A DNA stretch of 64,000 bases from Irpex lacteus. Lineage: Eukaryota; Basidiomycota; Agaricomycetes; Polyporales; Irpicaceae. Made by a program: the position numbers and the translations under genes. Below, piece by piece: positions 22,077-64,000 of the stretch. Numbering within the stretch: the first letter of the stretch is position 1; each line of letters starts with the position of its first letter. The notes beneath the pieces were generated by a model. It was given only the letters and a program-made list of their open reading frames with translations, made no database searches and had not been told where the DNA came from. The DNA is taken from NCBI GenBank assembly GCA_001986395.2, contig MQVO02000015.1, forward strand, positions 744,001 to 808,000. The letters are read 5' to 3'.

Positions 22077-22490
22077 CTACAATTCATGGCAATAAGAGGA
22101 GAGTGTAAGGCTCAAGTGTATATGTGGTGTGTTTGTACTTACGGAGAGCGTGATTGTATGGTGATCTAAAATGGGTTTGGATATGAGCAGGCTGGGGGTC
22201 AAGACTCGACTCAAGTAGAGATGAGGGTAAGAGACAAGAGCCTGGAATCCGTGCCGCAACGGGGATGCGAGATAGAGGCAGTGCCTGGAAGTGGAGATGA
22301 ACGTGAGAACCACTACGTCTAAAGTAAGGTTTTTATGGCCGAAAAAGGGATACATAAAGAGTAAACAAACTTTAAGTTGCTAAATTCTTTTTCTACACGA
22401 AAAATCATAACAAAATTTGTATCAACATTTCACATTTGTAGAGATATGAAAGAATAGAAAAATCATAGGCTACCTTTGCATTTTAGAACC

Positions 22491-22910
22491 TGTAAAATGT
22501 AGTTCACCATTATATTTGTGTCACAAACAAATTCAATTCAAAATTATAGACGTTTATTATTTTACCCCAAGAAAAAATGTAAACTTGGGATATTATTTTT
22601 TGTTCCTTTTTCAGTGTTCAAAATGAAACAGTGATTGTAATCTTTTGTTATACTTTGTGTATTAGTAAAACGTGACACCGGTAGTTACATTTAAACTTCT
22701 ATTTATGTATTATTGTTGTTTTCATTTTTTCAAAATTTCATCATAAGAAAAATCAAATACATAGGATTGAAAAAATCAAAGTGTCTGGCTTTTTCTTTTG
22801 TGGGGTGTAAAATAGTAAACAAATGGTTCGCTACAAAATTACATTTTCTATATTCTTTTACTACCTGTAAAATCAATGTTCTCTTGATTGCATTTTTTGG
22901 AATGTAAAAT
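22491..22910 (+). repeat. Subterminal TGTAAAAT repeats
   Basis: Exact TGTAAAAT occurs at about 22491, 22806, 22866 and 22903 in the left arm (mirrored in the right arm), along with near matches such as AGTAAAACGTGAC. In plant CACTA elements, subterminal repeats of this sort bind a transposition protein; a similar role here is inferred. Confidence 0.45.
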
Positions 22911-22984
22911 CTAATATAAAAATCTGACTCATATTATTAAACTTTTACGTTTCACAAAATATTGAAGCAAATCAGAAGACATAG

Positions 22985-23037
22985 TCATTTGTCACTAGTC
23001 ATTTGTCACTTGTCGGGAGTCATTAGTCATTTGTAGT
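22985..23037 (+). repeat. Short tandem repeat AGTCATTTGTCACT
   Basis: Two full and two partial copies of a 14-bp unit, mirrored in the right arm. Confidence 0.7.
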
Positions 23038-23593
23038 CTGTTTTGTCCTGTTTTCCAGATTTATGCAGGACAAATGTTTCTTTTACTGTGTTGAGACAAT
23101 AAAATGCACTCAAACAAAGGACTAACCTACCAAATCGCCTAAAAACTACAAAGGTGCGATAATGTGGAATGGACAAGAGCAGGGAAGCATACTGTATAAT
23201 TCAAATTGTAGCGGACAAGCTTGTGACCTATGACAAAAAGTTTCACAGCAGATGAGCAGACAAGCCAAGGCCCCAGTGTGACATGTGTCCGCTAACGGAC
23301 CCGCGTATGCTTCACAGAGCCACAAAATTCCAGGCGAGATGGGACTTCAACAGTCACTAGCGAACAAGGAAGTGGTGACGTGTGACGGAGTGCATTTAGC
23401 AGAGGGGATGAGGTCCATGTTACGCTAAATTTGTATCTACAAGAATCTGGTCTTCATATACATTTTTCTGAAGGTCATTTACTGAGATAAAACTACAGAA
23501 TTCTCTGTGCTTGGTAAGGCGAAGTGAAATGCGAGGAGAAACAGAACAGAGCCAACAAAAGAGGAAGGCGGGCTGGACTCAACACCCAAACCC

Positions 23594-23735
23594 TGTTGTA
23601 ATTAGGCGCCTACGGCGCATAGATATCGTGTGGCGTAGATTAAACGCTCGCTTACGTAGATGTACTGTACATGTCCGTAGCCACACCAAACCTTATTGAA
23701 TTGTCTCGTTGTCCCGCCTCCTCATCCCGACAAAA
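23594..23735 (+). repeat. 5' LTR of the gag-only element
   Basis: 142 bp, nearly identical to 24909-25050. Its end is fixed by the adjoining primer-binding site and the AACCC target duplication. Confidence 0.85.
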
Positions 23736-23748
23736 GGTTATGAGCCCC
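23736..23748 (+). other. Primer-binding site (half tRNA-iMet type)
   Basis: GGTTATGAGCCCC begins right after the 5' LTR. It is complementary to a Met tRNA anticodon arm (GGGCTCATAACC) rather than to a tRNA 3' end. Confidence 0.6.
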
Positions 23749-24051
23749 GCCGGCGCGCAGGTTCTTTGACTTCTTTGCTTCTTTCTCGATCGGCAACTTG
23801 CTCCCTTGTTCGCTTTACTCCTTGAACTCGTCTGTTAGCCACGGCAGCTCAGTCTGAGCTGTGCACCGTGCCCGAAGCCCACTCGTACCGTCCGTTAGTC
23901 ACGACTGCTCAGGTGAGCAGTGGACCGTGCCCGTACCGTCGTAGAAGTCGCGGCTGCCAGGTAGGCAGTGGACCGCGCCCGAAACTCGAACTCGTACGTT
24001 ATTGTCGCATCGTATCCCCCTTCCCTTTCGTTTTCGCCACTCGTTTTCGTC

Positions 24052-24835
24052 ATGGCCGACTCGTCGCGCTACTTGTTCGAGAAGTTGAAGTCTGGAGGAT
24101 GGTTTAATTGGTCTATGCGGATGCAGATGAGGTTAGTGGAGAAGGATCTTTGGAGCAGAGGAGAGGCCGGAGACTGGTGTCAAGAAGCAGGCCACGTATG
24201 ACAAGCGCGCCCAGACTTGCCTCGCAGAGCTCGTCCGCCATGTCGAGGACTCTGAACTTCCCCACATCTGTCGCTACCTCACACCCCCTGAGCCTTGGCT
24301 TGCTTGGGAGCGCCTTCGCGGCGTACACGAGGGTCGTGGCTGGGCCACTCACATCCAACTCTGTCGTAAGTTCATCACCGCTCAGATGGACGTGACGAAA
24401 CCTATGCAGGACCACATCAACATGGTTAACGAGCTCGCTACCCGCCTCGCCTCCATCGGCTCCCCCGTCAGCAAGGAAGATATTCTTCTCGTTCTCCTTG
24501 CGTCCCTCCTCGACGCCTACGACAACATCGTTGTCGCCCTCGAAACCCATCACACCTCCCTTACCGTCGACATCGTCACTTCTGCGTTGCTCAACGAAGA
24601 ACGTCGTCAGGCAGACCACACCGAGCGCCTCTATCCGAACCAAGTCACACTCGTCGCTCGTAAATCCGCCGCTCCCCGTGATAAATCGCACATCACCTGC
24701 TTCCACTGTGGTCGCAAGGGCCACTACAAGTCTGAATGCCCGGATGTCGAAGAAGATCTGAAGTCTTTCGCAAGAGCGAAGTTAGCAGCCGTAAATCAGG
24801 AGGAGGAAGATTCGAAGCCGTTTAGGGTATTCTGA
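24052..24835 (+). pseudogene. Copia-type Gag (UBN2 family) with one frameshift, left arm
   Basis: The frame starts at ATG 24052 (MADSSRYLFEKLKSGGWFNW) with the W-x-x-W-type start typical of UBN2 Gag. After the DLW triplet near 24150 the homology continues in another frame (by about one base) through AQTCLAELVRHVEDSELPHI and VNELATRLASIGSPVSKED to a CCHC zinc knuckle, CFHCGRKGHYKSEC (CX2CX4HX4C), and stops at 24835. The single break would cut the nucleocapsid part from the N-terminus unless ribosomes shift frame. The copy in the right arm has the same break. Confidence 0.75.
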
Positions 24836-24908
24836 TTCAGTGGGTGGACTTTTTCGTATTCACGTTTATGTTTTGTATCGCTTGCATTTATTCTTCGCCA
24901 AGTGGGTG

Positions 24909-25050
24909 TGTTGTAATTAGGCGCCTACGGCGCATAGATATCGTGTGGCGTAGATTAAACGCTCGCTTACGTAGATGTACTGTACATGTCCGTAGCCACA
25001 TCAAACCTTATTGAATTGTCTCGTTGTCCCGCCCGCTCATCCCGACAAAA
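24909..25050 (+). repeat. 3' LTR of the gag-only element
   Basis: 142 bp. It is preceded by a purine-rich AAGTGGGTG likely used as the polypurine tract. Confidence 0.85.
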
Positions 25051-25190
25051 AACCCTAGTCGGCGCTATGTGCCGCTATCATTGGGATAAACCTGCTGACG
25101 CCCAAATAAACAACGCACCCCCTCAACGAGCAGGTGGGTGAAACATGGCGTGAGTTGCCTTAAAAGAAATACGAAGGAGCATCTGTGGTT

Positions 25191-25394
25191 TCAGTAGTAA
25201 CAAAAGCGATATTCGACTCGATCTTCTTTTTGGCCTGGCCTAATGTAACCCTCCTTTCCGCACCTATGACAGAAAATACCTTTCCTGTACCTTCGTTTCT
25301 TCTCTCCTGCATAGAGTACGGTGGCATCGGCAGGTTCGCGCGTCGTCTTGAATAATGCGCCCAATGAGATCGGAAGAGCAGAGTGATGAGTCAA
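25191..25394 (-). pseudogene. Truncated second Copia-type gag fragment, left arm
   Basis: The minus strand encodes TVLYAGEKKRRYRKGIFCHR, a basic stretch that leads into a zinc-knuckle-like motif where the expected His and last Cys are replaced (CHRCGKEGYIRPGQ). Nothing of the Gag core precedes it. It is a decayed fragment unrelated in frame to the gag-only element next to it, and is mirrored at 60906-61109. Confidence 0.5.
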
Positions 25395-25641
25395 TATTGA
25401 TGGAAGAGATCAGCCAAAGGAGGGTCTGAGTGAAACATGTACAAAGGGAATACAAGAAAAGGCAGATAAAACAAGTGAAGATGAAGGGAAACAAGCGGCG
25501 AGCACATGGAAAATGAGTAATGAACGTCAGCGAGCAGGATGAAACAGGGGTGAGCAAGCAAGAATCGTACAACAAGCAAGCAAGGACGAATGAGCAAAGG
25601 AACAAAAGAAGTGAATGGTGAAGTTGAAATAAGCAACATAA

Positions 25642-25644
<3 letters not shown>

Positions 25645-25681
<37 letters not shown>
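25645..25681 (+). repeat. Poly-A run, 37 A (left arm)
   Basis: The mirrored run in the right arm has 33 T. This is the only length difference found between the arms. It could be the tail of a retroposed sequence. Confidence 0.9.
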
Positions 25682-25684
<3 letters not shown>

Positions 25685-26975
25685 AGCAATGGTATGAGTG
25701 CTCGCCTTGAGGCAACCAGAGTGACAGTGCAATGTCCGAAAAGGGCAAGGCAGCAAGTACCTGGCCAATACAGCCGAGCGTCCAATAGCAAACCTGCCCA
25801 AAAAGTCTAAGTGAGGTGGTTGGTTGCATATGGTACGACTGCATGAGAGCCACGTAATTAAGATGTTGTGTTACCAAAACAAGCGAGAGGGCGGGCGAAC
25901 ACGTGCGAGGAGCACGAAGTCCGAGCCAGAGATACCGAGTGACCTAACAATCACCTAGGAATGGTGAAGGATACCGTGAGAAAAAGATCTGAGAGAGTGA
26001 TCATGCAAGCAAGGTGGGCAAAGGGTGATCGTCAGCGAGGGGCTTGCCCGTGCTAGCAAGTGAGATGTCCCAAAGCTAATCACGGCAAGGCCAAAAAGAG
26101 CTGTTAGAGTGTGAGTGCAGCTGCCCCGTTTAGCAGCGCATGTCACCATATATGCATTACAGAAGGAAAAACACCTGTGAGCGACTCTGCGAAGGAAATA
26201 TTTTGATGCATCTGACCCTGTCATGTGAGTTAGTTTGAGACTAGACAATGAGACTAATCAAACCGGAAGTATTTCAACAATAACTTCCCGATAAGGCAAT
26301 AGTCCGACAAAAAGAGAGCGAGCATCCGGAAACTTCAACATATTCAACATCACTGCCGTCATGACTCTATTACTAACCTAGTTCGTTGTAACGCAATGTC
26401 TTGACTAAAGGCAACAGAGTTCGAAATGACAAACGCGCCCAGATTGATCACGACGGGTGTCTGCCATGAAGCGCTGCGACCTGTATAAGTAGTCCACGTG
26501 CGCTTGATAGTCTGAGAAACGTGCTTTAATCATGAGTCAGAGGCCTAGGCATCCTTTGTCCACGTGGACTTTCGGGAATGTCCATGTCCGGTGCGAGGAC
26601 CGATTCTGTCGTCCTTAGAATTTGCCTCTTTTGGCAGCACGATAGCGCACTCAACGTCTCATCACAACCTTGCGTAGAACGCGGCATCTCTCCTTCGAGA
26701 GACTGAACGCCGACTGAATGCCACTAGTCACTGACCACCAATCCATAGGGTCTCAATTGTCGCTTATACGGCGCTGACCAAAACGATCGTGCAAATTATG
26801 TACTTAATGTCCCGGGCGCACGTATCAGAGCGGCCCAGGGCAGGTTTCAATACTTCATTCATGTAGCTCAGACGGCTCGGTTTCGTCACACAAAAGTATG
26901 CATAAACATAAATTCGAATAAATTAAAGGACAGACAAAATGACGCGACACGGAAAACATGAAATTGGCTCCATGA

Positions 26976-28891
26976 CTATTGGGTGCCCTTGGGCTCAACT
27001 CCGGCCGACGCAAGCCATGGATGCCTTAAGGCTTCCGCGACGGAAATTCGCTGGGTCGGATCGCGTTGGCAGAGACGAACGATAAGATCCCGCACTTCGG
27101 TCTAGATGAGATAAATCGTCTACGTCATGAATCGAAAACTCACCTTCTTCGCTCCAGGTATTGGGCAGTTGCTCCCAGCTAACCACACGAGTGTCAATGC
27201 CTTGCTCGAGTTGAACAGCTCCTTGAGCGAAAGGAATCTCTCCACTGAGCCTTGATGAGTGTAGATGTTAACGGGGAATGACTGCCCACTATTAGCACAT
27301 TGAAACGCACATGTGTATGATGGTGACTCCAACAGACCAGCTATCCACTTTAAAGTCATAGCGGGTGGGGCCTGTATTTGCAGCGCAGACTTCGGGAGCC
27401 ATATAAGCGGGAGTGCCGCACATGCTCTATACGACGTCCAGTGAGCATATGTAAGGCATGGACCATTAGTAGCGACAACTTACGTGATTAGGTGCTTGTT
27501 CGTCATGCGCTTTCGCAAGGCCAAAGTCCGTGACTTTGATCACCGCAGGTTGAAGCGAGGCAATTAGGATATTCTGTTTGTGATTGGTCATTCTGCTACC
27601 TTCCATTATTTATACCTAGCACATGACTTACCGCGGGCTTGATATCACGGTGAATGATATTGGCGGAATGCAAGCAGCAGAGTGCCGAACACAATTGTTG
27701 GGTTATAAGTTTCGCATCTGGCTCACCTGCAGGAGCACGGGGTAAATCTCTGGGCAAATGGGCAAAGGTGTGAACGAGATATCACTGACCAACGCGCTGT
27801 TCATGCTGAATGGCCGAGCTGAGATTACCGAACCGAGCGAGTTCCATGATAAGATCTGGCCAGGAATGGTAAGGGCTTTGCGGTTACCCGTCAAAAAGTT
27901 CGCTACTCACAAACGTGACGATTCTCGATGATGACGTCCTCAAGACGGACAATATTGGGCTATAGTAGGCGAGAAAGTGGTAAGTAGGATGAATTTTGGA
28001 CTATCGGCTGATGCTTACATGGTTGATGCTCCCCATGAGGTTCATTTCACGCTTGACGACCGCATGTCGTCTCTTCTCGTCTTCGGGAGAGTCAGCGTGC
28101 TCGCCAAGCGGGATGATTTTAATGGCAACTGGTAAACCGGTACCGCGATTCACAGCTTCGACTACTGTACCGAACGTGCCTCTACCTAGCCTAGTGCCAG
28201 CAGCTTCAGTACGGCCAGAGAGATACAGGATAGGACTCACTCCTTGCCAACGAGGAAGTACCGACTGCTCAACTTCAAAGCACATTGTCAGTCGTGGTAT
28301 TGCTCAGGGCGCATGTACTCACAGATTCCGGGGAGTATTTGGTGAATACAAAAGCTGTACAATAAATAAGTATTACAGTCAAAATCGTTCCACAATTGAA
28401 TGCTGACATATCGCATCGTCTCGTGGTCCTCCTAAAGATATTGTATAGCCGTCTTCGATAGCGAATGGTTTATGGGGCTGTAGTTTGCGGTCGTTGATCT
28501 AAGATTCCGAGATTAATTGGGGAGAAAGAGCAAAAGGCGGATAGGCAAAAACTCACGAAAGAGCCATTCTTACTCAGATCCGTCACGTTGACAAGATATC
28601 CCTTCTTGTCAGGAGAAATGGTGCAGTTTATCGCACAATGAAAACGGCCTGTGGTAGGTTTAATGGTCACTCAATACGTCGCTCAGGCTTTCATCTGAGA
28701 CACTCACTAAGAGAGCCTTCTCCTAATAAGGGCTGATCGCATTCGAGGTCCCTCCCGACAATGAACTGTTCTACACGAAACGGAACCTCAAAACCGTAGG
28801 AGGGGTCATCGACAGATTTGAATACTCCGCAGAGGGGCTTCAGATCTGTGCGAGTACCGTCAGAAGCTACGCTGGGCGACGAGGATGCCAT
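26976..28891 (-). CDS. FHA-domain Ser/Thr protein kinase (Rad53/Chk2-like), copy 1
   Basis: A multi-exon gene from ATG at 28891 to a stop at 26976. The first exons give an FHA domain: GRDLECDQPLL, GRFHCAINCT and VTDLSKNGSF followed by INDRKL, the phosphothreonine-binding core. A kinase domain follows with LGRGTFGTVVEA (glycine loop), VAIKIIPL (lysine), IIHRDIKPA-NILI (catalytic loop), VTDFGLAK (DFG) and MCGTPAYMAPEV (activation segment), and ends in a typical RDPTQRISVAEALRHPWL. All catalytic motifs are present. FHA plus CAMK-type kinase is the build of checkpoint kinases of the Rad53/Chk2/Cds1 type, but the actual pathway is not shown. It is the paralog of 32062-33948 and lies next to the left arm. 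Confidence 0.88.
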
Positions 28892-30190
28892 GGATGTTTG
28901 GAACTCAAGGTTGTTCTGGGTGGAAGAGGGGAGGGTAGTCGATGCGTTGCAGAAAAAAAGGTCAGGCCGCAGTTTATATCGTTTGAGTTCAGCTTACCTC
29001 TTGCCACTCGGTTTGACGGGTGAGCCATCTCGCCCGCCGGAATGGTTGCCATTGTCTTTGTTACTGTAAGGGTGACGAAGCCATGCCAGCCAGCTAATTT
29101 GCCACTGAGTGGTGATTGAAAGCACGACAGTCACAGTAATAGGCCAGACCAATGTGATAGAGACAAAGACGACTCACCGCGATCGCTGTCAATGTTCTGC
29201 AGTCATGTTGCCACTCGTGCCACTGGAAGCGCACTGAACATTGGTAGCCAGAGGTGATACTGCTGTTCGTATACAATGATCGTTTCGGTCCGCGCGAGTC
29301 ACTCGTTAGGTAGCGTTTCCGATTAAGAGCTGAGATACGTACAACGCGCCGACAAGACAATCCCCATCTTTGTTAGCTCTGTGTGATATGGCTGCCAATG
29401 TCCGGTACTGCAGAATGAATGAGCGGTATGCAGCATGAATCTGAATACAAAGGAAAACACTCACATTTCGGACAAAACAGAGCTGCGACGAGATTCATCA
29501 TCTTTATAACTGACCCCTACAAAGGAGGCTATTCCTGGAAACGAGAGATCATCGTGGTATATCATCGTGGTATGCGCGACGTCACAGCTCACTTCCGTTG
29601 TGAACTTTGCAGGCGTTGCAAAGAACGTCCATTCACAGGTGCAGACTGCGTGCGGTGGCTGTGCATTGACGCGCTGAAGGTCGGCTCTGTAAGGCCCCTT
29701 CCTTGCAGTGCGCGTGGTCACGCATCGTTCAATCAGACAACTTGAACCCCGGCCGCTAGACACTGTCATCCACACACAACTTGAGCTGGTCTCATTGCGC
29801 GAGGCTATGACAGGTGCGGGCTGCTGGGTAGTCTGAGTAAGGGCAACAATTGGAGCGGCGCGTTATGTTATAGACGATTTCGAAGTTGCATACATTATTT
29901 GTCAGCAGTTATTAAAAGTGCAATAGATCAGCGTTGCGAAACATGACGAAGAAAGCGAAGAAGAGAGCGATTGACATGAAAGTCCGTCTGTAACGACTCA
30001 GAGAGGAGGGAGGGAATGGATTCAATTGATAGCAAGGCGAGAGCAGACTTGACGAGAACAAACAAGCCAAAGCGTAGATTGGACGTTAGAAAAAGAGCTT
30101 GCCCAGAGCCCTCAACGAGTCAAACATGACGGACAGGGGTGAGCGAGTCACAGTGTTGAGAACGGAGCGATCGGTGACAGTCTACGAATA
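28892..30190. other. Intergenic, no gene supported
   Basis: It contains the upstream region of the FHA kinase. Short frames on both strands carry no recognisable motif. Confidence 0.35.
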
Positions 30191-31100
30191 TTAGACCGAC
30201 GGGACAGCATCAAGGATAGGAGCACGTACCATTATGGCTGTTATAGTGCCCTCTTGGCCTTTCAGAGTTGTAGTGCACACCTTCGCGAGTTCCGGAGGGG
30301 TTACCAATGCTGCAGAGACACGGTTTGTGTGTTTCTGCTGCGTAGTAAAGAACACCGTGAGGGTCTGGCCGCTACGCAATATACCATCTGTGGGCCAGCA
30401 GGCCACTCGGATGGGCTAAGGCAATGTCAGTCAGATCATGCATGTAGACCAGAACGTGTCCAGTATCACTCACGATCTCTTCCTCAATGGTAGTCGACTC
30501 AGAATCCTCTACAAGCTTCTTGTTGAAGGTGATGGCAAGTCTAGCAACTTCAACCTCCTCAGAAAAGGAGAACCACGATGAGACTTGGGCGAGAGAGAAT
30601 AGTCGCGACCACATAACGGGGTGCTGGGGAAGTTCCTATGAGACAACCATCGAAAGCTCATGCTGTTTAAGTAACAGATGCCACGTACTCCGCAATCTCT
30701 ACACACCTGGATAGCGTCTTAGTAGCGGGGCTTGTATCCTGTTGAGGATTAGTCTGGCGGCCTCTACTCGCACTTGACCGACTCGCGATCGGGAGAGCTG
30801 CTTTCGACAGGATCGCCACATCCCTAGAACCCCAGAAAACGAAGGGTGTCAATTCAATAAGCAGGGACGACGACCATCAGAAAGGGTTCTGAACATACCG
30901 TACTACGACGGGGCACATCCGTCGTAAAGGATAGGCACAGAAGTTGGCCCTGCCGAAAATGAACGGGTCGTCATCGACACGACCGTCAACAGATAGGCTG
31001 CTCGGTGCAATGTATGTCTAGCTGCCTTGCATAGTTCGATAGGTTCGCAAGTACGTCTGGGACAATCTGTGCTGTGTCGCCTGGGAGGTGTCAACTAAAG
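30191..31100 (-). CDS. Unrecognised multi-exon protein, structure uncertain
   Basis: The best supported part is two exons joined in phase by an intron near 30470-30416. They encode a stretch containing MWSRLFSLAQVSSWFSFSEE and ITFNKKLVEDSESTTIEEE, then PIRVACWPTDGILRSGQTLT and QQKHTNRVSAALVTPPELAK, with a stop at 30191. Further coding-looking pieces lie upstream (a basic Ser-rich stretch near 30720-30850 and FIFGRANFCAYP near 30950), but I could not join them with confidence. I do not recognise the family, and the 5' end is not fixed. It lies between the two kinase paralogs in the same orientation. Confidence 0.4.
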
Positions 31101-32061: not shown

Positions 32062-33948
32062 TCAGGCATTACGAGGGTTGAGCCACACGTGGCTCGCGGC
32101 TGTGGCCATCGAGATACGACGTTGCGGATCACGCTCGCATAGACCACTGACGAGGTTCCGAGCTGACTCGCTGCAGTTAAGTCATGCATCCATTACTAAA
32201 ACGATGCTGCTTACCTCCAGAGCTGCAGGTAGAAGGGAGATGTTCCGGTCGAATCTCCCTGTTATCGATACCTTGCTCAACTTGGATATCGTGTCGTGAA
32301 AACGGAACTTTGCCAGACAACCTGTAGTGTGTTAGGAAGCGGAACGGTGGGAAAATGAGAACGTACATGTGTATCAATGTAACTCCAACAGACCAGCTGT
32401 CTACTTTATAATCGTAGCGACGTCTGGCCGGGTTTAACACGAAAATTTCAGGTGCCATATACGCAGGGGTACCACACATTGTCTGGATAGAAACATTTAG
32501 ACGTTTTGGTAAGATATGTAATGGTGGCTAGACAAGGCTGACCTGTACAAGCGAGCGAGCATCGTGGGCTTTCGCAAGTCCGAAGTCTGCAACCTTGATG
32601 ACCGCAGGGGTGAACGAGCAGATGAGAATGTTCTACAACAGTTGTTAGTAATATTCGAGCAATTGATATGTCATTTTACTTACAGCGGGCTTGATATCGC
32701 GATGAATGATCCCCGCGTTATGTAGCCACAATAATGCAGCGCACAACTGCTGTGTGACGGTCTTCGAGTCGCGCTCACCTATATCAGACAGATTTGTTAG
32801 CAATCTACCTTGAGCATCGCGAACACCAGGTACGAGCACACCCAATAAATTAACCCGCCGAATGAGCGAACCGAGATTGCCATGACACGCGAATTCCATG
32901 ACAAGGTCTGTAGATACGAATTAGTGAGAAGTCTAAAGCAAATACTAAGCCACAACGAACAAACGCAATTATCCTCGATCATGGCTGTCTCCATCTTGAC
33001 AATATTGTGCTAGATTACGGGCGTGTACTCAGCATGAAAGTGGCCAACGCAGCATAAGTAACTCACATGCTGTATGCGGGCCAACAAGTCTATTTCACGC
33101 TTTATGACAGCCCGCCTGTGCTCTTCTTCCTCTGCACTGTGTCCACGAGCCTCCAGTTTAATCACCTTGACCGCGACCGGTGATCCCGAACGACGGTCGA
33201 AAGCTTTCACCACAGTCCCAAACGTACCCCTGCCTAATCTATCCAAGTCGTGAGCGATGTGGCCGAGAAAGCTGTTCTGCACTATACACTCACTGCTCAG
33301 ACTGAACGCTGTACAATGCGTGCAGCTACGGTACATGTATGTCAGTGTATCGCAAGATCGTCGCGCTCGAAGATGACTTACTGAATTCGGACTGTACTTG
33401 ATGAACTCGAAAGCTGCAAAGGGCGCAATGAAAAGGATGGAGCCAATCGTATTAACAGGCTACTTACATGGACCTTCTAAAGCACCAAGCTTGATAACCG
33501 AGCCGCCTTTGATCTCGAACGGCTGCTCGCGTTGTAGGCGGGTGCCATCGACCTGTATGAGACAGATGGCCATAGTGAGTAAAGCAGGCACAAAGGAAGC
33601 AAGTAACGACCACATACATATGACCCGTTCTTGCTACGATCTGTAACGTACACAGTATAGTCGGTAAGATCTTGATCGAGAGTGGCGTGAACGGTACAGT
33701 GGACCTTGCCTAGGATACTACGCTTAATTATAAATACCTTGGAAGGAGTCTGCTCACTTACTGACGAAATCTTTGCATAGTAAAGGCTGATCACAGCTAA
33801 GGTCTCTGCCGATAGTAAAGCGTGGAAGTTGGTACGGTATTTCGAAAGTGAAGGAGGGTCCATCCGTGGCTTTGAATATGCCACAGATGGGACGACGGTT
33901 TGATCGAGCAACAGCATCTGAAGGCGCAGGCAGTCCGGGGTTGGCCAT
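32062..33948 (-). CDS. FHA-domain Ser/Thr protein kinase (Rad53/Chk2-like), copy 2
   Basis: The ATG at 33948 is chosen because MANPGLPAPSDAVARSNRRP then aligns with the start of the paralog at 26976-28891. The FHA core is visible (GRDLSCDQPLL, GKVHCTVHAT, VTDRSKNGSYV). The kinase part has LGRGTFGTVVKA, VAVKVIKL, IIHRDIKPA-NILI, VADFGLAK and MCGTPAYMAPEI, and ends in RDPQRRISMATAASHVWL with the stop at 32062. All catalytic residues expected are present. One extra stretch (GVLVPGVRDAQGRLLTN) between helices is probably a retained intron in the simple reading. The two kinases look like an older duplication, since they differ throughout. Confidence 0.87.
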
Positions 33949-35072
33949 AGCGAAGGAGACGACGACAGACAACGCAAATGTTCGTGAAGATAATGAGACA
34001 GCAGTTGGGGAAGCGTACTCGAAGCGGCTCCCACCTTATGAATGGTCGCTTCCCACAGCAAGCCACAATCCGATCCTAACTCAGCAAGCACTCAGACCGG
34101 CACCGGGTCTAAATTCCATAAAGCGCATAATGGGCCCAACAGATGAGACTATGATAGAAGCCAAGGGAGGGTGCACACAGTTGAACACGCGTTGCCTGCC
34201 ATCATGTTAGTATTCCCGGCCACACCCATTCAGCCAAAGGATACATCGCACCTGTCGTTTACCACGTGTTCTTAATATATGCCAATGGCACAATTGACGA
34301 CGAAGGAGTTTGTGATGAGCGATAACCAGATATGTGGTAGCCGTGTGGAACGATTGGGTGTCGGGATGAGCGCAGAACGGATGAAAGGGCACCTGATACA
34401 AGATTGAGCCTTTCGACGCGATTATTGGCCTTGAAATTCTCCGGATTTTTATACCTCAGTAGTGCTCCAATCAATTCAAGTCAAATTGACGCACCGTCAT
34501 GTTTGCTGTCATGGAATGGGGCGAATTCCACCTACCACGCGGTAATAGCAGCCAAAGTTGAGTTTGCAGCGAGTGTCTCGTCTCAACGGCGAATATACGA
34601 AGTCAATTGGGCCCTCGTAGAATTTCACTCACTTGGATAATTGACACACGTAGATCGTGTGCGCTACTGCAGCTTAGCCGTAGTTCAAGTACTGACGTAC
34701 GATAAGATCAGGCAAATACGAAGCTCATACGGTTCGCTGCAGCGTATCTCGCCGGGAGCTGGTGCATCCGATTGGGCCAGGTCTCTGCAACATGGAGAGA
34801 GCCTCTACGATGGTAGAATGCCTCAGTACGAGGTCAGAAGGATGAAATGGAGATGGACTTACGTGTATACCTGTCCAAAAACCGACATACTCACAGCGGA
34901 ATCCCATACGGTTTTCACCTTCTCTGCCTGCGAATCCGAGAAACTCTTCGACTATCGAGGTCCATCCGAGTGCGCAAATGTTACTGAACATATGCGATTG
35001 CTTCCAAAATATGCAAATCATAAAATCAATCAATGAGTACTCGACTGTCGGTCAGGATACCAAACGCAAATA
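33949..35072. other. Intergenic, no firm gene
   Basis: Overlapping frames at 34641-35036 (+) and 34725-35033 (-) are open for about 100-130 codons, but neither has recognisable motifs. I cannot choose between them. Confidence 0.3.
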
Positions 35073-40863: not shown

Positions 40864-40977
40864 CGTAGTTTGCAATCAACACTGTGTTAGGAACGAATCC
40901 CGCTGTGCTCAAGTCGAACTAACTGCCCATTTAAAATACAAATTCCTGATGTATATACATGAACGTAAAAATCGTAA

Positions 40978-54053: not shown

Positions 54054-57000
54054 ATGCGGCCCTACTTACGTCGAGGGGCTGCAGTCGGCCAACGACGTCC
54101 GCCACCCAAACCGATCGCTCTCGTGCTCTGTACATGCGTAGAATGCGCCGACAACAACATGGCATTCGACCCAGTAGCTGGGAAAATGGTCCCCGGTCGA
54201 CTTATCGGACGTCAAATGGCAATCTTCCATCGAAGGCACGGAGGTTCTGTGCCACGCACCCGAGACGATGACATACCTGCAGGCACATCCACCGAGCCCA
54301 TCCAGGAATCCTCGGACAGTGCACAGTACGTTCATATAAAATATGCATTTTGAACTCCAGATGACCGGATCTGCTTAGGTCCATGATACAATCCGCTCTC
54401 ACGAAGATCCAGGCGCTACGAAAAGAGTGCAGGGATAGGGCATCCAAGATCACTCGAATCGACGGCCTCATTTTCCTTATCTCACCTCAGTCAGCTTCTC
54501 TCTCAACGGCTCCCCGGGGTGGTTTGTCTGGCTTGAATGATGGGAAGCACGCGCTGGACCCTAATCAAGCCGTAAACAAGGACTACTTAAAGCATGAGTT
54601 GTGGCTATTGTCGGCGCTGGAGGAATTGGACGCAGTAAGCTCTCACTCTGAGGAAGTCGTCAGGGAGCATCGTAGGAAAGCAGTGAAATCTATCCAATCA
54701 GAGCTGGACAGGTTAGAGTTGTTGAAGGCGGAGGAATGGACACGACAGGAAGCTTCTCAATCCAGGACGAGGGCTCTCGCTCATGCTAGCGGAGTGGAGG
54801 TTATAGATACGGGTAAGGCAATATCAGTTCCGCAGATATACTCTCTAACCATGCACTCTAGATAAATATACCGCCCTGTCGATCTACACGTCCCCCGTCG
54901 CGTTTGTACTGCACTCAATTACCGCAATACTACTGCTTATGTGTAAAGTCTCCCTTGCACATTGCTCTGTGGTACTCATCGGCATGCGCTCGCTCGCTCT
55001 GGCCATCCTCGCGGCCGTGAACGCGGCCCCTACTGCTGCAACGCCAGTCCTAAACTCAATGGTGCAGGATGTTCATGCTGCGTTCGACGCTATGAACTTG
55101 CGACCTACCGCTCGCGAGTTCATGTGCTGCCCCAAATGCTACGCCTGCTATGTTAAAGAAGATTGTCCGGATACGTGTACTAGCGTCGCCAATGCTAACG
55201 GTGATCCTTGTGGCCGAAGGTTACTTTCGAAGATGAGCGGAACAGCAAACAAATTTCGCGGAGCTGCTGCGAAACGCTACCTCCATCACGACATGAAAGA
55301 GTGGCTTGGTAAGATGCTCTCACGCCCTGGTATGGAGCAGCACCTGGACCGAGACGTATACGATACTGGTGCTCCTTCAGGTGAAATGCATGACATCTGG
55401 GACGGTGATGTTCTTAGACATTTCAAGACTCCTGACGGACACCTCTTCGTCAAGCCGAAGCATAAGTCCGAGGGGCGGTACATATTTTCATTGAATATGG
55501 ACGGTTTCAATCCCCTAGGAGGACGAAAGGCAGGCAAGGCGATTAGCACGCAGGCGATTTACATGGCTTGCTTGAATCTTCCACCCCATCTTCGCCATCG
55601 ACCAGAAAACATCTTCCTTGTCGGTCTCATCCCCGGTCCCGCGCACCCAGTACTTACCCAGATCAACCATTTCCTGCGGATTTTGGTGGACGAACTGCTC
55701 GTTTTTTGGAATCGTGGTGTCTATTACTCGAGGACCCCTTCCTATCCAGACGGCCGCTTAATCAGATGCGCGCTGATTCCCGTAATCTGTGACTTACCAG
55801 CAGCACGGCAGATCCTGGGTTTTGCGAGTCATTCGGCGACCAACTTCTGCAATTTCTGTCGTCTACCAATCCAAAAGATCAATAATGTCGATCCTTCAAC
55901 ATGGCCACCTGGTTATAGTGGGCGCGCAGAGTATTGTACGTATGCAAGCGCGTGGAGAGATGCGGGGGAAGCAGAGCGATGCGCGCTTTTCAACGAAACC
56001 GGCATACGGTGGACGGAACTTCTCCGTCTACCGTACTGGGATCCGACCAGGTATATTGTCCTCGACACCATGCATTTGTGTTATTTGGGCAACTATCAAC
56101 GTCACTGTCGGGTTGTGTGGGGGATGTCCGTCTCTGTCGCGGATGGAGACGGCCTAGTACAACAAGTTATTCCTGACGAGGAGATGATCTCCTTGGCATG
56201 GGAGATCGTTCGCGGTGGCACCGACTCCGAGCTGCAGAAAATCAAAGCCAACATTCTTCGACAGATCTGTACCGAGCTCTCGATACTGGAGCGAGCCAAC
56301 AAGGCTCAGATGATATCGGGAATCAAGCGATACGTGAGTACTCAAGCCAGCAGTTTGTTTATCCAAAGCTCAACTAGAACAGCGTCATATGGCTGGACTC
56401 GTCAATGCCAACGGTACCCCTGTTCACCCAAGGGTCAAGCGACGCCCACAGGCTGGACCAGTAACTGACGAGGAAGTCCAACAAACCAGTACTTCCGTGT
56501 GGAAATCTGCTTCGGCGGCGGATGCCAAGCAGAAAGGGGTTCGCAAGGCGGCACTCGTGCCAGTGGCGGAGTCATGGAGTCGGTACCTGAACGCATCGGC
56601 CAATTCGGAAGAGGTTGTGGACGGTGGCGATGACGATGACGAATGGATGGATGACTTAGACGACTTTGAGGATGAGGATGAAGCATCTGGAGATGAGGAC
56701 GATTCTGTGGACGAGCAAAATGTTGTCAAAGGCGGAGATCCAGGTACGACCACGTCAAGTACAAGCTCTAGTCGGGATAAAAAGTATGTCGATATGTCCC
56801 GAGACGAGCTTTTGAAGACACTCTTCACCATGGTAACTCTGTCATTCTTAACAATCGTGCTTTGACTAATATATTTTACATCTAGCGAGGTCAACTTGCA
56901 AGCAGACTAGGGGATACCGTACGTCCGCCTGGAGGAACGAGAAAAAAAACAGGGGTTTTGGGGCGAGCAACACTTGAAGAAGTATGGAACGATATCCAGC

Positions 57001-58187
57001 GAACTGAACTACCTTCGTGGGCTGGGAAGGCACCTGTTGGAGTGGGAAAGGCTGGTAGGGGTAAGCTGAAGGCCGACGAGTGGAGAACGCTATGCAATGT
57101 CAGCCTCGTTCACACGCTCGGCCGTGTATGGAACGAACATGGAGTGAACTCTCGGCACTGCCAGTTGTTGGATAACTACATGGATTTGGTTACCGCTACG
57201 AAGCTCGCGACGCGAAGGGTCCTCACTCCCGGTATCATACAAGAATACCGCGTGTGTATCGAAAGGTATCTGCGTACACTGCGTATCCTTTTCCCACATC
57301 GTCGTATATCTCCGAACCAACATTTGGCAGTTCACTTGCCAAAGGCTCTTGCAGACTTTGGGCCGACTCATGCCTGGCGATGCTTCCCCTTCGAGCGATA
57401 CAACTATATACTGCAACAAATCAATACCAACGCGAAATCAGGTAAGACTCACCTCGGAGGAAACAGCATAATGCTCAATTTATTTGAAGGTGAAATGGAA
57501 GTGACGATGTTCGAGCGCTTTTGTATGATGCAGAACCTCCGCGCCCTCATGCAGTTCGATTTGCCTTCTGAGGTACTAGATCTCCAAGCACGTTTTCTCA
57601 ACGTTTTCGGCCCGGACTACGGTGGTACGGCTCTGAACGACTTGTGGGCCTCCGACGTGGACGCTCCTCAGTATCATAATACGAGCAAAAGGAAATCGTT
57701 GGATAAAGAAACATGGGCTTTACTCAAACAATGGTTTGTAGACAAAGCCTTGGGCAACCACGCGCCACGAGATGTTCTCTTCCAACGCTCAGTCAAGAAA
57801 TGGAATATGAGATTCTCCACCCGTGTCGGTCGTACTCATAACGGGGACAGTAATATCGTCTGGGGCAACCCGGCCACTGACTCGTGGCATGCTGGACGCA
57901 TCAGATCCATTTTTGTATGGCCAGGAGAGGTAGAGCAGATATTCTTGGTGGTCGACCAGCTGAAGGCCAAAGGAAACACGAGCCTCTGGCAACGATATAG
58001 AAGCTCTGCGGCCGGCCGAATATTTGAGGACAAAGTATCCGGAACTCGTATCCTCCGTCTGGACGAGGTTGCTTGCCATTCAGCTGTCGTGCCTTTCGCC
58101 TTTGGCCCCGCAAAGCAGCCTTGTTTACACGTGTTGCCATTAGAGAGGGTGAGTCCCGATACTGCCAGAACGAAAAATCCCGTCTGA
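54054..58187 (+). CDS. Tnp2-type CACTA (En/Spm) transposase, apparently intact
   Basis: Five exons (54054-54325, 54379-54812, 54862-56333, 56383-56832, 56886-58187) join without a break to 1,309 residues. The N-part has a Cys motif (LCTCVECADNN), a helical region, then a zinc-binding stretch (CCPKCYACYVKEDCPDTC). The catalytic region shows SLNMDGFNPLG, CLNLPPHLRHRPENIFLVGL followed by IPGPAHP, and VICDLPAARQILGFASHSAT with CNFC, the hallmarks of Tnp2 proteins. An acidic linker follows, then a DUF4218-like block (NQHLAVHLPKALADFGPTHA, WRCFPFERYN). The stop at 58187 could move slightly if a last intron (GTGAGT at 58148) is used. It would cut CACTA-type ends and could act on both elements in the window. 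Confidence 0.88.
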
Positions 58188-59616: not shown

Positions 59617-60619
59617 ATGCCGCGTTCTACGCAAGGTTGTGATGAGACGTTGAGTGCGCTATCGTGCTGCCAAAAGAGGCAAATTCTAAGGACGACAGAA
59701 TCGGTCCTCGCACCGGACATGGACATTCCCGAAAGTCCACGTGGACAAAGGATGCCTAGGCCTCTGACTCATGATTAAAGCACGTTTCTCAGACTATCAA
59801 GCGCACGTGGACTACTTATACAGGTCGCAGCGCTTCATGGCAGACACCCGTCGTGATCAATCTGGGCGCGTTTGTCATTTCGAACTCTGTTGCCTTTAGT
59901 CAAGACATTGCGTTACAACGAACTAGGTTAGTAATAGAGTCATGACGGCAGTGATGTTGAATATGTTGAAGTTTCCGGATGCTCGCTCTCTTTTTGTCGG
60001 ACTATTGCCTTATCGGGAAGTTATTGTTGAAATACTTCCGGTTTGATTAGTCTCATTGTCTAGTCTCAAACTAACTCACATGACAGGGTCAGATGCATCA
60101 AAATATTTCCTTCGCAGAGTCGCTCACAGGTGTTTTTCCTTCTGTAATGCATATATGGTGACATGCGCTGCTAAACGGGGCAGCTGCACTCACACTCTAA
60201 CAGCTCTTTTTGGCCTTGCCGTGATTAGCTTTGGGACATCTCACTTGCTAGCACGGGCAAGCCCCTCGCTGACGATCACCCTTTGCCCACCTTGCTTGCA
60301 TGATCACTCTCTCAGATCTTTTTCTCACGGTATCCTTCACCATTCCTAGGTGATTGTTAGGTCACTCGGTATCTCTGGCTCGGACTTCGTGCTCCTCGCA
60401 CGTGTTCGCCCGCCCTCTCGCTTGTTTTGGTAACACAACATCTTAATTACGTGGCTCTCATGCAGTCGTACCATATGCAACCAACCACCTCACTTAGACT
60501 TTTTGGGCAGGTTTGCTATTGGACGCTCGGCTGTATTGGCCAGGTACTTGCTGCCTTGCCCTTTTCGGACATTGCACTGTCACTCTGGTTGCCTCAAGGC
60601 GAGCACTCATACCATTGCT

Positions 60620-60622
<3 letters not shown>

Positions 60623-60655
<33 letters not shown>
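60623..60655 (-). repeat. Poly-T run, 33 T (right arm)
   Basis: Mirror of the 37-A run at 25645-25681. Confidence 0.9.
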
Positions 60656-60658
<3 letters not shown>

Positions 60659-60905
60659 TTATGTTGCTTATTTCAACTTCACCATTCACTTCTTTTGTTC
60701 CTTTGCTCATTCGTCCTTGCTTGCTTGTTGTACGATTCTTGCTTGCTCACCCCTGTTTCATCCTGCTCGCTGACGTTCATTACTCATTTTCCATGTGCTC
60801 GCCGCTTGTTTCCCTTCATCTTCACTTGTTTTATCTGCCTTTTCTTGTATTCCCTTTGTACATGTTTCACTCAGACCCTCCTTTGGCTGATCTCTTCCAT
60901 CAATA

Positions 60906-61109
60906 TTGACTCATCACTCTGCTCTTCCGATCTCATTGGGCGCATTATTCAAGACGACGCGCGAACCTGCCGATGCCACCGTACTCTATGCAGGAGAGAA
61001 GAAACGAAGGTACAGGAAAGGTATTTTCTGTCATAGGTGCGGAAAGGAGGGTTACATTAGGCCAGGCCAAAAAGAAGATCGAGTCGAATATCGCTTTTGT
61101 TACTACTGA
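60906..61109 (+). pseudogene. Truncated second Copia-type gag fragment, right arm
   Basis: Same sequence as 25191-25394 in inverse orientation. The zinc-knuckle-like motif lacks its His and last Cys. Confidence 0.5.
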
Positions 61110-61249
61110 AACCACAGATGCTCCTTCGTATTTCTTTTAAGGCAACTCACGCCATGTTTCACCCACCTGCTCGTTGAGGGGGTGCGTTGTTTATTTGGGC
61201 GTCAGCAGGTTTATCCCAATGATAGCGGCACATAGCGCCGACTAGGGTT

Positions 61250-62706
61250 TTTTGTCGGGATGAGCGGGCGGGACAACGAGACAATTCAATAAGGTTTGAT
61301 GTGGCTACGGACATGTACAGTACATCTACGTAAGCGAGCGTTTAATCTACGCCACACGATATCTATGCGCCGTAGGCGCCTAATTACAACACACCCACTT
61401 GGCGAAGAATAAATGCAAGCGATACAAAACATAAACGTGAATACGAAAAAGTCCACCCACTGAATCAGAATACCCTAAACGGCTTCGAATCTTCCTCCTC
61501 CTGATTTACGGCTGCTAACTTCGCTCTTGCGAAAGACTTCAGATCTTCTTCGACATCCGGGCATTCAGACTTGTAGTGGCCCTTGCGACCACAGTGGAAG
61601 CAGGTGATGTGCGATTTATCACGGGGAGCGGCGGATTTACGAGCGACGAGTGTGACTTGGTTCGGATAGAGGCGCTCGGTGTGGTCTGCCTGACGACGTT
61701 CTTCGTTGAGCAACGCAGAAGTGACGATGTCGACGGTAAGGGAGGTGTGATGGGTTTCGAGGGCGACAACGATGTTGTCGTAGGCGTCGAGGAGGGACGC
61801 AAGGAGAACGAGAAGAATATCTTCCTTGCTGACGGGGGAGCCGATGGAGGCGAGGCGGGTAGCGAGCTCGTTAACCATGTTGATGTGGTCCTGCATAGGT
61901 TTCGTCACGTCCATCTGAGCGGTGATGAACTTACGACAGAGTTGGATGTGAGTGGCCCAGCCACGACCCTCGTGTACGCCGCGAAGGCGCTCCCAAGCAA
62001 GCCAAGGCTCAGGGGGTGTGAGGTAGCGACAGATGTGGGGAAGTTCAGAGTCCTCGACATGGCGGACGAGCTCTGCGAGGCAAGTCTGGGCGCGCTTGTC
62101 ATACGTGGCCTGCTTCTTGACACCAGTCTCCGGCCTCTCCTCTGCTCCAAAGATCCTTCTCCACTAACCTCATCTGCATCCGCATAGACCAATTAAACCA
62201 TCCTCCAGACTTCAACTTCTCGAACAAGTAGCGCGACGAGTCGGCCATGACGAAAACGAGTGGCGAAAACGAAAGGGAAGGGGGATACGATGCGACAATA
62301 ACGTACGAGTTCGAGTTTCGGGCGCGGTCCACTGCCTACCTGGCAGCCGCGACTTCTACGACGGTACGGGCACGGTCCACTGCTCACCTGAGCAGTCGTG
62401 ACTAACGGACGGTACGAGTGGGCTTCGGGCACGGTGCACAGCTCAGACTGAGCTGCCGTGGCTAACAGACGAGTTCAAGGAGTAAAGCGAACAAGGGAGC
62501 AAGTTGCCGATCGAGAAAGAAGCAAAGAAGTCAAAGAACCTGCGCGCCGGCGGGGCTCATAACCTTTTGTCGGGATGAGGAGGCGGGACAACGAGACAAT
62601 TCAATAAGGTTTGGTGTGGCTACGGACATGTACAGTACATCTACGTAAGCGAGCGTTTAATCTACGCCACACGATATCTATGCGCCGTAGGCGCCTAATT
62701 ACAACA
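61250..62706 (-). mobile_element. Gag-only Copia-type LTR retrotransposon, right arm
   Basis: Inverse copy of the element at 23594-25050, with LTRs at 62565-62706 and 61250-61391 and the same AACCC-type flanks. It is part of the duplicated arm, not an independent insertion. Confidence 0.85.
61465..62248 (-). pseudogene. Copia-type Gag with the same frameshift, right arm
   Basis: The predicted protein pieces are identical to those of 24052-24835, including the frame change after DLW and the CCHC knuckle. Confidence 0.75.
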
Positions 62707-64000
62707 GGGTTTGGGTGTTGAGTCCAGCCCGCCTTCCTCTTTTGTTGGCTCTGTTCTGTTTCTCCTCGCATTTCACTTCGCCTTACCAAGCACAGAGAAT
62801 TCTGTAGTTTTATCTCAGTAAATGACCTTCAGAAAAATGTATATGAAGACCAGATTCTTGTAGATACAAATTTAGCGTAACATGGACCTCATCCCCTCTG
62901 CTAAATGCACTCCGTCACACGTCACCACTTCCTTGTTCGCTAGTGACTGTTGAAGTCCCATCTCGCCTGGAATTTTGTGGCTCTGTGAAGCATACGCGGG
63001 TCCGTTAGCGGACACATGTCACACTGGGGCCTTGGCTTGTCTGCTCATCTGCTGTGAAACTTTTTGTCATAGGTCACAAGCTTGTCCGCTACAATTTGAA
63101 TTATACAGTATGCTTCCCTGCTCTTGTCCATTCCACATTATCGCACCTTTGTAGTTTTTAGGCGATTTGGTAGGTTAGTCCTTTGTTTGAGTGCATTTTA
63201 TTGTCTCAACACAGTAAAAGAAACATTTGTCCTGCATAAATCTGGAAAACAGGACAAAACAGACTACAAATGACTAATGACTCCCGACAAGTGACAAATG
63301 ACTAGTGACAAATGACTATGTCTTCTGATTTGCTTCAATATTTTGTGAAACGTAAAAGTTTAATAATATGAGTCAGATTTTTATATTAGATTTTACATTC
63401 CAAAAAATGCAATCAAGAGAACATTGATTTTACAGGTAGTAAAAGAATATAGAAAATGTAATTTTGTAGCGAACCATTTGTTTACTATTTTACACCCCAC
63501 AAAAGAAAAAGCCAGACACTTTGATTTTTTCAATCCTATGTATTTGATTTTTCTTATGATGAAATTTTGAAAAAATGAAAACAACAATAATACATAAATA
63601 GAAGTTTAAATGTAACTACCGGTGTCACGTTTTACTAATACACAAAGTATAACAAAAGATTACAATCACTGTTTCATTTTGAACACTGAAAAAGGAACAA
63701 AAAATAATATCCCAAGTTTACATTTTTTCTTGGGGTAAAATAATAAACGTCTATAATTTTGAATTGAATTTGTTTGTGACACAAATATAATGGTGAACTA
63801 CATTTTACAGGTTCTAAAATGCAAAGGTAGCCTATGATTTTTCTATTCTTTCATATCTCTACAAATGTGAAATGTTGATACAAATTTTGTTATGATTTTT
63901 CGTGTAGAAAAAGAATTTAGCAACTTAAAGTTTGTTTACTCTTTATGTATCCCTTTTTCGGCCATAAAAACCTTACTTTAGACGTAGTGCATGGCGTTGA

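What the first reader, a model, noticed from the sequence alone, without database searches (positions are those of the whole stretch)
22311..63989. Candidate giant CACTA transposon (41.7 kb) with cargo genes
Seen directly: inverted CACTACGTCTAA ends, each in a 4.37-kb arm, enclosing an intact-looking Tnp2 transposase and about a dozen non-transposon genes. Known: Tnp2 belongs to CACTA/EnSpm transposons, whose ends begin CACTA and whose target duplications are 3 bp. Inference: the whole segment is one transposon that captured genes, comparable in concept to the giant cargo elements of ascomycetes but built on a different transposase class.
Basis: partly seen in the sequence, partly recalled or inferred. 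Interest (0 to 1): 0.9.

Follow-up and report, generated by a model that had tools for sequence, protein, structure and literature searches.

The report
Giant gene-carrying fungal jumping gene
A fungus, probably a wood-decayer, carries a family of unusually large jumping genes that travel with the same set of passenger genes, including copies of a DNA-damage alarm enzyme, so the passengers look like permanent crew rather than random cargo.

Summary
In detail: 22311-63989 has inverted CACTACGTCTAA ends in 4,377/4,373-bp arms differing only by AAAA, around an uninterrupted 1,309-aa Tnp2 model and 12 other gene models. The 44.3-Mb genome (probably a polypore) shows a mobile family. A second copy (C67) ends at the same terminal base in other DNA. 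Nine of nine shorter elements with both ends read have perfect 3-bp target duplications. C252 (Tnp2 block inverted) and C19 carry 11 and 8 of the 13 genes in order, at 37-77% protein identity. A distant 32.5-kb element with CACTG ends has two insertions with 3-bp duplications, each read across two contigs, and shares Tnp2, a WD40 protein and two unknown proteins. So the extra genes are mostly a conserved complement under purifying selection (dN/dS 0.08-0.30 in 7 of 8 compared), not fresh captures; two are Chk2/Rad53-like FHA kinases. Against: the window copy has no target duplication (AAC versus CAT), no empty site was found, C19 shows no ends, and the assembly is chimeric at one such element. 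Giant EnSpm elements of 15-20 kb with accessory genes are reported in algae; this is a larger, fungal variant.

The parts
22311..26687 (+). left arm (long terminal inverted repeat, 4,377 bp), CACTACGTCTAA at the outer end
59617..63989 (-). right arm (4,373 bp), identical to the left arm except for 4 A
   Evidence: the same terminus stands in different flanking DNA at C67:11352
22311..23072 (+). terminal core shared at about 74% with a 2.3-kb element on C264; 27-29% GC in its first 750 bp; holds a TAGTCAT-type tandem repeat at 22982-23034
23594..25050 (+). gag-only Copia-like LTR element in the arm: 142-bp LTRs (98%), gag ORF 24137-24835, 5-bp duplication AACCC; mirrored in the right arm at 61250-62706
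26976..29241 (-). FHA + protein kinase gene 1, Chk2/Rad53-like, 511-aa model
30191..30614 (-). small gene model, 121 aa, conserved on C252 by translated match
32062..34119 (-). kinase gene 2, 519-aa model, homologous to gene 1 and with FHA-like and kinase motifs; 71-77% identical to two E2 models
35073..35468 (-). small gene model, 131 aa, conserved on C252
36912..38399 (-). WD40-repeat gene, 391-aa model; shared by E1-E4
39989..40848 (+). gene model with a membrane-type stretch (by eye); its 3' exons overlap the next gene on the other strand and are doubtful
40978..42046 (-). protein '40978' without Pfam match, 285 aa; shared by E1-E4
42674..44882 (-). unknown protein, 544-596 aa depending on the model run, shared with E2
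45398..45598 (+). 66-aa model; matches part of the E2 gene 39390, so probably a 5' exon of the next gene
45760..48328 (+). unknown protein '45760', 674 aa; shared by E1-E4; its homologues lie near a Tnp2 at all 10 places found, this one included
48883..49977 (+). unknown protein '48883', 325 aa; shared by E1-E3 and a Tnp2 locus on C58
52641..53299 (-). weakly conserved gene model, 204 aa, with a membrane-type stretch (by eye)
54054..58187 (+). Tnp2 transposase, 1,309-aa model, 5 exons, with a BAG-domain match in its N-terminal part
6669..7921 (.). 1,253-bp element with the same ends, ~568-bp arms and TAA duplications (separate insertion, probable non-autonomous relative)

Best explanation
22311-63989 (E1) is a 41.7-kb element of a CACTA/EnSpm-type DNA transposon lineage. 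Its own Tnp2 protein most likely binds the AT-rich terminal core, cuts at CACTA...TAGTG and inserts the whole unit at a new site with a 3-bp duplication (inferred from the family; shown here as DNA marks, not as activity). Besides Tnp2 the lineage keeps a conserved crew of genes: Chk2/Rad53-like FHA kinases, a WD40 protein and several unknown proteins. They have stayed together and diverged with the transposase for a long time and bear the mark of purifying selection (shown, roughly). The simplest reason is that they serve the element. The 45760 protein, which goes with Tnp2 in all four giants read here, may be an accessory transposition or end-binding protein. The kinases may couple excision and gap repair to the host's DNA-damage response (both inferred). 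Shorter elements with the same ends are probably mobilised by the giant copies, since no normal-sized coding element with these ends turned up.
For: C67:1-11352 equals window 52629-63989 at 99.67% and leaves it at the terminal base for other DNA. Shorter elements with the same ends have 3-bp duplications, 9 of 9 with both ends read. E2 (C252; 11 of 13 models matched) and E3 (C19; 8 of 13) are collinear apart from an inverted Tnp2 block in E2. The two lone ends C252:10536 and C187:977809 are both flanked by CGT and by the two halves of another TE. E4 (32,530 bp as assembled on C187) has CACTG ends, a 509-bp TIR at 99.8%, and flanks pairing as TGT/TGT and ATA/ATA over contigs. Four genes are shared by E1-E4. 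Leaving out the query's own place and counting E4 once, 45760 homologues lie within 45 kb of a Tnp2 at 8 of 8 places and within 20 kb at 7 of 8, p about 1e-12 by a rough binomial. dN/dS E1-E2 is 0.08-0.30 over whole alignments for 7 of 8 genes compared; WD40 is saturated. The Chk2 match covers FHA and kinase, residues 117-504.
Against: No target duplication at the window site (AAC versus CAT), and C67's flank (AGG) matches neither. No empty site: the right flank found only itself at high identity, and the left flank was not searched. The C67 copy is cut by its contig end, so no second complete E1 was seen. E2 and both E4 insertions are read across two contigs each, and C187 appears to be chimeric there; E2's two ends could also be separate insertions into the same spot of two copies of one repeat. 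C19 shows no matching ends within about 6 kb of the gene block. In E2 the Tnp2 block is inverted and several genes are interrupted or split. Neither the kinase nor 48883 was found in the part of E4 that was read, so the shared core is four genes, not the whole crew. At least five Tnp2 loci showed no 45760 homologue. No movement or expression was observed.
Confidence: 0.85

Rival explanations
1. The element is real, but the copy as assembled at C315 is a chimera: its left and right flanks belong to different insertions of near-identical copies, joined by the assembler through the element.
For: No target duplication at C315; three arm ends with three unmatched flank triplets. The same assembly shows such switching between two E4 copies on C187, whose flank triplets pair with other contigs.
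Against: The matching partner flanks (right flank starting AAC, left flank ending CAT) were not found next to any arm: only three E1 arm ends turned up.
Confidence: 0.35
2. An ordinary chromosomal segment was bracketed by two CACTA ends and occasionally moves as a macrotransposon; the interior is host DNA.
For: C19 carries the gene order without detected CACTA ends.
Against: Three interior genes besides Tnp2 were searched genome-wide. 45760 homologues were found only near Tnp2 genes (10 of 10 places, own place included). 48883 homologues lie at four Tnp2 loci and one weak place. Kinase matches at 50% identity or more are confined to E1-E3 apart from short fragments on C315, C25 and C18 (84 of 150 candidates scored). 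The distant E4 shares four genes.
Confidence: 0.06
3. One reading: a CACTA element that captured about a dozen host genes as cargo, recently.
For: Plant CACTA elements capture genes (PMC4290129, passages seen). The kinases are clearly of host type.
Against: Collinear E2 and E3 with high synonymous divergence (E1-E2 pS 0.64-0.75) show that most genes have been aboard for long. No close donor copy outside giant elements was found for the three genes searched.
Confidence: 0.05
4. The crew genes serve the host (for example, defence or competition between nuclei), and the transposon is kept for them, as proposed for some Starship cargo.
For: Purifying selection fits this as well. FHA kinases and WD40 proteins are host regulatory types.
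Against: Four of the same genes are together even in the distant E4, and several E2 genes are interrupted, which a needed host function would not easily allow.
Confidence: 0.15

Closest known systems
CACTA/EnSpm DNA transposons (fungal and plant), Tnp2/Transposase_21
   Same: CACTA ends, Tnp2 transposase, 3-bp duplications in the family, short relatives with the same ends, a repeat in the subterminal region
   Different: 32-42 kb with about a dozen genes (usual 1-2 ORFs, PMC6431247 passages), conserved crew genes with FHA kinases and WD40; this copy has no duplication
Giant EnSpm elements of the red alga Chondrus (16-20 kb, 4-5 ORFs; PMC6431247, passages) and of Ectocarpus (EnSpm up to 15.2 kb, KDZ up to 30.3 kb, with accessory genes; PMC12477816, passages)
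   Same: EnSpm-type giants with accessory genes and nested insertions
   Different: Here fungal, about twice as long, with one gene set conserved in order across lineages
EnSpm and Plavaka elements of fungi encoding TET/JBP (PMC12730594: abstract, outline, sections 15 and 18)
   Same: EnSpm-like ends 5'-CAC..GTG-3', 3-bp duplications, an extra regulatory gene
   Different: No TET/JBP match among the window proteins scanned; different and more crew genes; Plavaka ends are TGT..ACA or CATCA..TGATG
Starships (ascomycete giant cargo elements; also reported in Tremella, PMC13066641, passages)
   Same: Tens of kb, many genes moved as one unit
   Different: Classified by a tyrosine recombinase (start of the abstract of PMC12134995 in the listing) instead of a Tnp2 transposase with terminal inverted repeats
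CACTA gene capture in wheat (PMC4290129, passages)
   Same: CACTA elements carrying genes, some under selection
   Different: There mostly gene fragments; here a long-kept collinear set

Membership tests
CACTA/EnSpm | Ends 5'-CACTA...TAGTG-3' in inverted repeats | tested here: met
CACTA/EnSpm | Tnp2 (Transposase_21) transposase inside the element | tested here: met
   PF02992 E=2.2e-14; uninterrupted 5-exon model
CACTA/EnSpm | 3-bp target duplication at the window copy | tested here: not met
   AAC | element | CAT; C67 has one readable flank, AGG. The mark belongs to an insertion event and can be lost or hidden by a misjoin; this copy is filed by homology to the lineage, not by its own insertion site
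CACTA/EnSpm | 3-bp target duplication in relatives | tested here: met
   9 of 9 shorter elements with both ends read; E2 CGT across two contigs; E4 TGT and ATA, each across two contigs
CACTA/EnSpm | DDE catalytic triad with C(2)C and H(3-4)H (as given in PMC12730594) | tested here: inconclusive
   Several D and H columns are invariant among 7 Tnp2 proteins (D413, D416, D427, D449, D512, D637, H640, H650 among others), but the triad was not mapped against a characterised transposase
CACTA/EnSpm | Short relatives sharing the ends | tested here: met
CACTA/EnSpm | Excision or empty site | tested here: inconclusive
   Right flank search found no second allele; left flank not searched
Plavaka | Termini TGT..ACA or CATCA..TGATG | tested here: not met
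   Ends are CACTACGTCTAA; criterion from PMC12730594 section 18
KDZ | 7-8-bp duplications (7 bp for Kyakuja in PMC12730594; 8 bp recalled) | tested here: not met
   Family duplications are 3 bp
Starship | Tyrosine recombinase captain (domain name DUF3435 recalled) | tested here: not met
   No such match among the 20 window proteins scanned; not every possible exon was scanned

The most novel reading that the evidence does not exclude
Some basidiomycetes harbour a long-lived class of giant CACTA transposons that carry their own DNA-damage checkpoint kinases and helper proteins, using them to time excision or steer repair of the large gap left behind. That would explain how a cut-and-paste element of 30-50 kb stays mobile.
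Probability: 0.25. Interest if true: 0.88.

Novelty: new variant of a known kind. Interest (0 to 1): 0.76.

Why it matters
Cut-and-paste transposition is said to drop with cargo above about 6 kb, although very large loads were moved in artificial constructs (PMC6431247, passages). A fungal CACTA lineage that keeps many genes in order over 30-50 kb, including Chk2-like kinases, makes a direct test possible of whether transposons recruit repair control to move large loads. It also gives basidiomycetes a possible vehicle for moving gene blocks, built on a different enzyme from Starships.

Tried and rejected
A simple reading as one fresh capture was dropped after C252 and C19 proved collinear. I first read the C252 left end and the C187 right end as one element with an unknown filling. 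One search showed that the filling includes a nested giant (E4), and that C187 itself switches between two E4 copies. Ends for C19 were sought by inverted-repeat BLAST and by CACTA scanning within about 6 kb of the gene block and not found. The ATTACGGCCGTAAT-type repeats flanking the C252 block were considered as its ends and set aside as other repeats. Structure prediction of the 45760 family (P0006-P0008) and of 48883 (window ORF plus P0009) gave mean pLDDT 33.7 and 37.9, so no fold search was made. Pfam found nothing for 48883, nor for its E2 and E3 relatives up to E 5; my impression that it has a BTB-like start is a recalled pattern only. The solved-structure search for 48883 found nothing. 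dN/dS was first computed with poorly matching columns dropped (E1-E2 0.06-0.21) and then on all aligned columns (0.08-0.30; WD40 undefined); the second is quoted. Eight gene pairs were chosen for it out of the 11 matched; 35073, 45398 and 52641 were left out as short or weak. Flank ORFs gave no Pfam match, 0 of 10. The association test included the query's own place and E4 twice; one search repeats it without these. Ten paper searches listed nothing on giant CACTA elements with conserved crew genes in polypores; subscription papers are mostly not in that library.
Full report
What is in the window. The pattern CACTACGTCTAA stands at 22311 (+) and at 63978-63989 (-), and also at both ends of a small element at 6669-7921. 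Five matches with up to one mismatch compare with 0.14 expected. The two outer copies head inverted arms of 4,377 and 4,373 bp that differ only by AAAA in a poly-A run. The flanks read ...GAGAAC | element | CATGGC..., so there is no 3-bp duplication at this site. The window is C315:744001-808000 of a 44.3-Mb, 317-contig genome. The three relatives found for interior protein 45760 come from Irpex lacteus and Cytidiella melzeri; the named Tnp2 relatives come from Pisolithus, Trametes and Puccinia at 31-41% (only the 7,992 candidates sharing most words were scored). A polypore of the Irpex group is likely (inference).

Genes inside. A small script-based gene finder, trained on long ORFs and helped by conservation with contig C252, gave 13 models between the arms. 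They are predictions, not transcripts. Tnp2 (54054-58187, 1,309 aa, 5 exons, no internal stop) carries Transposase_21 and, in its N-terminal part, a BAG-domain match. The BAG match is also seen in the E2 and E3 relatives, not in E4. Two genes encode FHA-type kinases; the first matches human Chk2 over both domains (E=2.8e-41, residues 117-504) and, over the kinase, yeast Rad53 (the best 60 of 2,681 matches were shown). Both keep the VAIK/HRD/DFG/APE motifs (motif meanings recalled). A WD40 protein is recognised. The other models scanned have no convincing Pfam family.

The element exists elsewhere. A search with the outer 1,001 bases of the arm gave 24 matches. Contig C67 (224 kb) begins inside the element and matches window 52629-63989 at 99.67%; at the very last base of the element it continues into DNA unlike either C315 flank. 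Its interior differs by 3 substitutions over about 7 kb, its arm by 18 over 4.4 kb, while the two C315 arms differ by no substitution; exchange between arms would explain this (inference). Its Tnp2 exons carry four single-base indels relative to the window. These may be decay, or errors at a contig end. The rest of this second copy was not found in the assembly.

Shorter relatives. Nine elements with both ends readable (one of 2.3 kb on C264, eight of 1.25-1.31 kb including 6669-7921) share the ends, and all nine have perfect 3-bp duplications. No normal-sized coding element with these ends turned up among the 24 matches, so the giants are the likely source of transposase (inference).

E2, a diverged giant. 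C252:18358-50977 carries matches to 11 of the 13 interior models, in order, at 40-77% protein identity; the Tnp2 block is inverted, and the WD40, second kinase and Tnp2 genes are interrupted or split. A lone left end at C252:10536 and a lone right end at C187:977809 align at 96% over 929 columns, some 30 of which lie in a palindromic stretch of the flanks. Both are flanked by CGT, and each sits against one half of another transposon; the halves meet at the same point. They are best read as the two ends of one element of about 81 kb that contains a nested giant (below); this join across contigs is inferred. Separate insertions into the same spot of two copies of that transposon are not excluded.

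E3, an older relative. C19:56135-75923 has the kinase, WD40, 40978, 45760, 48883, 52641 and Tnp2 homologues (8 of 13 models matched) in the same order and orientation as the window, at 37-54% identity. No CACTA ends were found within about 6 kb on either side. This is the main observation that speaks for the genes existing without the arms, but its Tnp2 travels with them.

E4, a distant giant. C187:940389-972918 (32,530 bp) has CACTGCGTAAG ends and 509-bp inverted repeats at 99.8%. C252:54096 onward is the left part of the same element; the stretch compared (54096-60000) is 99% alike. The left flank on C252 and the right flank on C187 both show TGT and are adjoining halves of one transposon. 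The left flank on C187 and the right flank on C182 and C181 (the two read alike in the bases shown) both show ATA. So E4 has two insertions, each with a 3-bp duplication read across contigs, and the C187 contig seems to switch between them. E4 carries Tnp2 and homologues of WD40 (best E=6.6e-26), 40978 (2e-21) and 45760 (3e-9). About 12.7 kb of its interior was not read; in the part read no kinase or 48883 homologue was found.

Do the genes belong to the element? Homologues of 45760 lie within 45 kb of a Tnp2 at 10 of 10 places and within 20 kb at 9 of 10, the query's own place included and E4 counted twice. Without these it is 8 of 8 and 7 of 8; a rough binomial estimate is about 1e-12 for either radius. 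The Tnp2 list is a lower bound (35 of 73 candidates scored). Homologues of 48883 occur in E1-E3, at the C58 Tnp2 locus, and weakly at C163. Five Tnp2 loci (C165, C308, C21, C37, C57) showed no 45760 homologue; C67 is cut before that gene. Between E1 and E2, synonymous differences are high in all eight genes compared (pS 0.64-0.75), and dN/dS over whole alignments is 0.08-0.30 in seven of eight; WD40 is saturated. Near-saturation makes these values rough. They still show that transposase and crew genes diverged over a similar time and under constraint. The 45760 family is also present in two other polypores, as unnamed proteins.

Mechanism. Shown: a defined unit with matching ends; a second copy ending at the same base elsewhere; 3-bp duplications in relatives; and a conserved gene set. 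Inferred: Tnp2 cuts and pastes at the CACTA ends; 45760 acts with it; and the Chk2-like kinases act on repair or timing. The kinase idea is the weakest step: FHA kinases could equally regulate the transposase itself or serve another purpose, and E4 may do without them.

What is known. Giant EnSpm elements of 16-20 kb with 4-5 ORFs are reported in a red alga (PMC6431247, passages). Ectocarpus has EnSpm elements up to 15.2 kb and KDZ elements up to 30.3 kb, with accessory genes in its giant families (PMC12477816, passages). Fungal EnSpm and Plavaka elements can carry a TET/JBP gene (PMC12730594, abstract, outline and two sections). Wheat CACTA elements capture genes (PMC4290129, passages). Starships use another enzyme (PMC13066641, passages; PMC12134995, listing and abstract start). 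PMC12810828 (passages) describes CACTA-group elements in Cryptococcus. Against these, the present family is a new variant: larger, fungal, and with a conserved crew.

Limits. No activity, no expression, no population data. The window copy lacks its own duplication. Several joins cross contigs in an assembly that looks chimeric at one such element. Gene models are approximate.

Noticed in passing
window 23594-25050 and 61250-62706: A gag-only Copia-like LTR element (142-bp LTRs, zinc knuckle, AACCC duplication) sits at mirror positions in both arms, so the arms were probably copied from each other after it inserted.
   Followed up: partly
C67:6988-11352 versus window 59617-63989: The C67 arm has 18 substitutions against the window arm, but the longer interior only 3, although the two C315 arms show none between them.
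   Followed up: partly
C187:940389 (L046) and 972918 (L045): Contig C187 appears to be chimeric between two copies of the 32.5-kb E4 element, judged by flank triplets.
   Followed up: yes
window 15641-22055 and C315:809783-815811 (in L011): Both flanks of the element hold diverged repeats of one another (66-84% DNA identity), probably a tandem gene family; the left-flank ORFs scanned had no Pfam match.
   Followed up: partly
C255:9690-15816, and single or non-inverted pairs on C58, C213, C308 and C255: CACTACATCCAA recurs in clusters; one inward-facing pair stands 6.1 kb apart on C255, possibly another CACTA family.
   Followed up: no
C252:29196-31774: A common repeat, present in many copies, interrupts the WD40 gene of E2; other copies of it were hit by the E2 and E4 insertions.
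   Followed up: partly
C58:2347650-2384252: A Tnp2 gene with two 48883 homologues and one 45760 homologue within 37 kb: a probable further giant element, ends not examined.
   Followed up: no
window 54365-54865: A BAG-domain match (Hsp70 co-chaperone type, recalled) lies in the N-terminal part of the Tnp2 protein, also in E2 and E3.
   Followed up: partly
P0009 (unnamed source): The only outside relative found for 48883 looks by eye nearly identical to the E2 version, so E2 probably occurs in another data set of this or a close organism.
   Followed up: no
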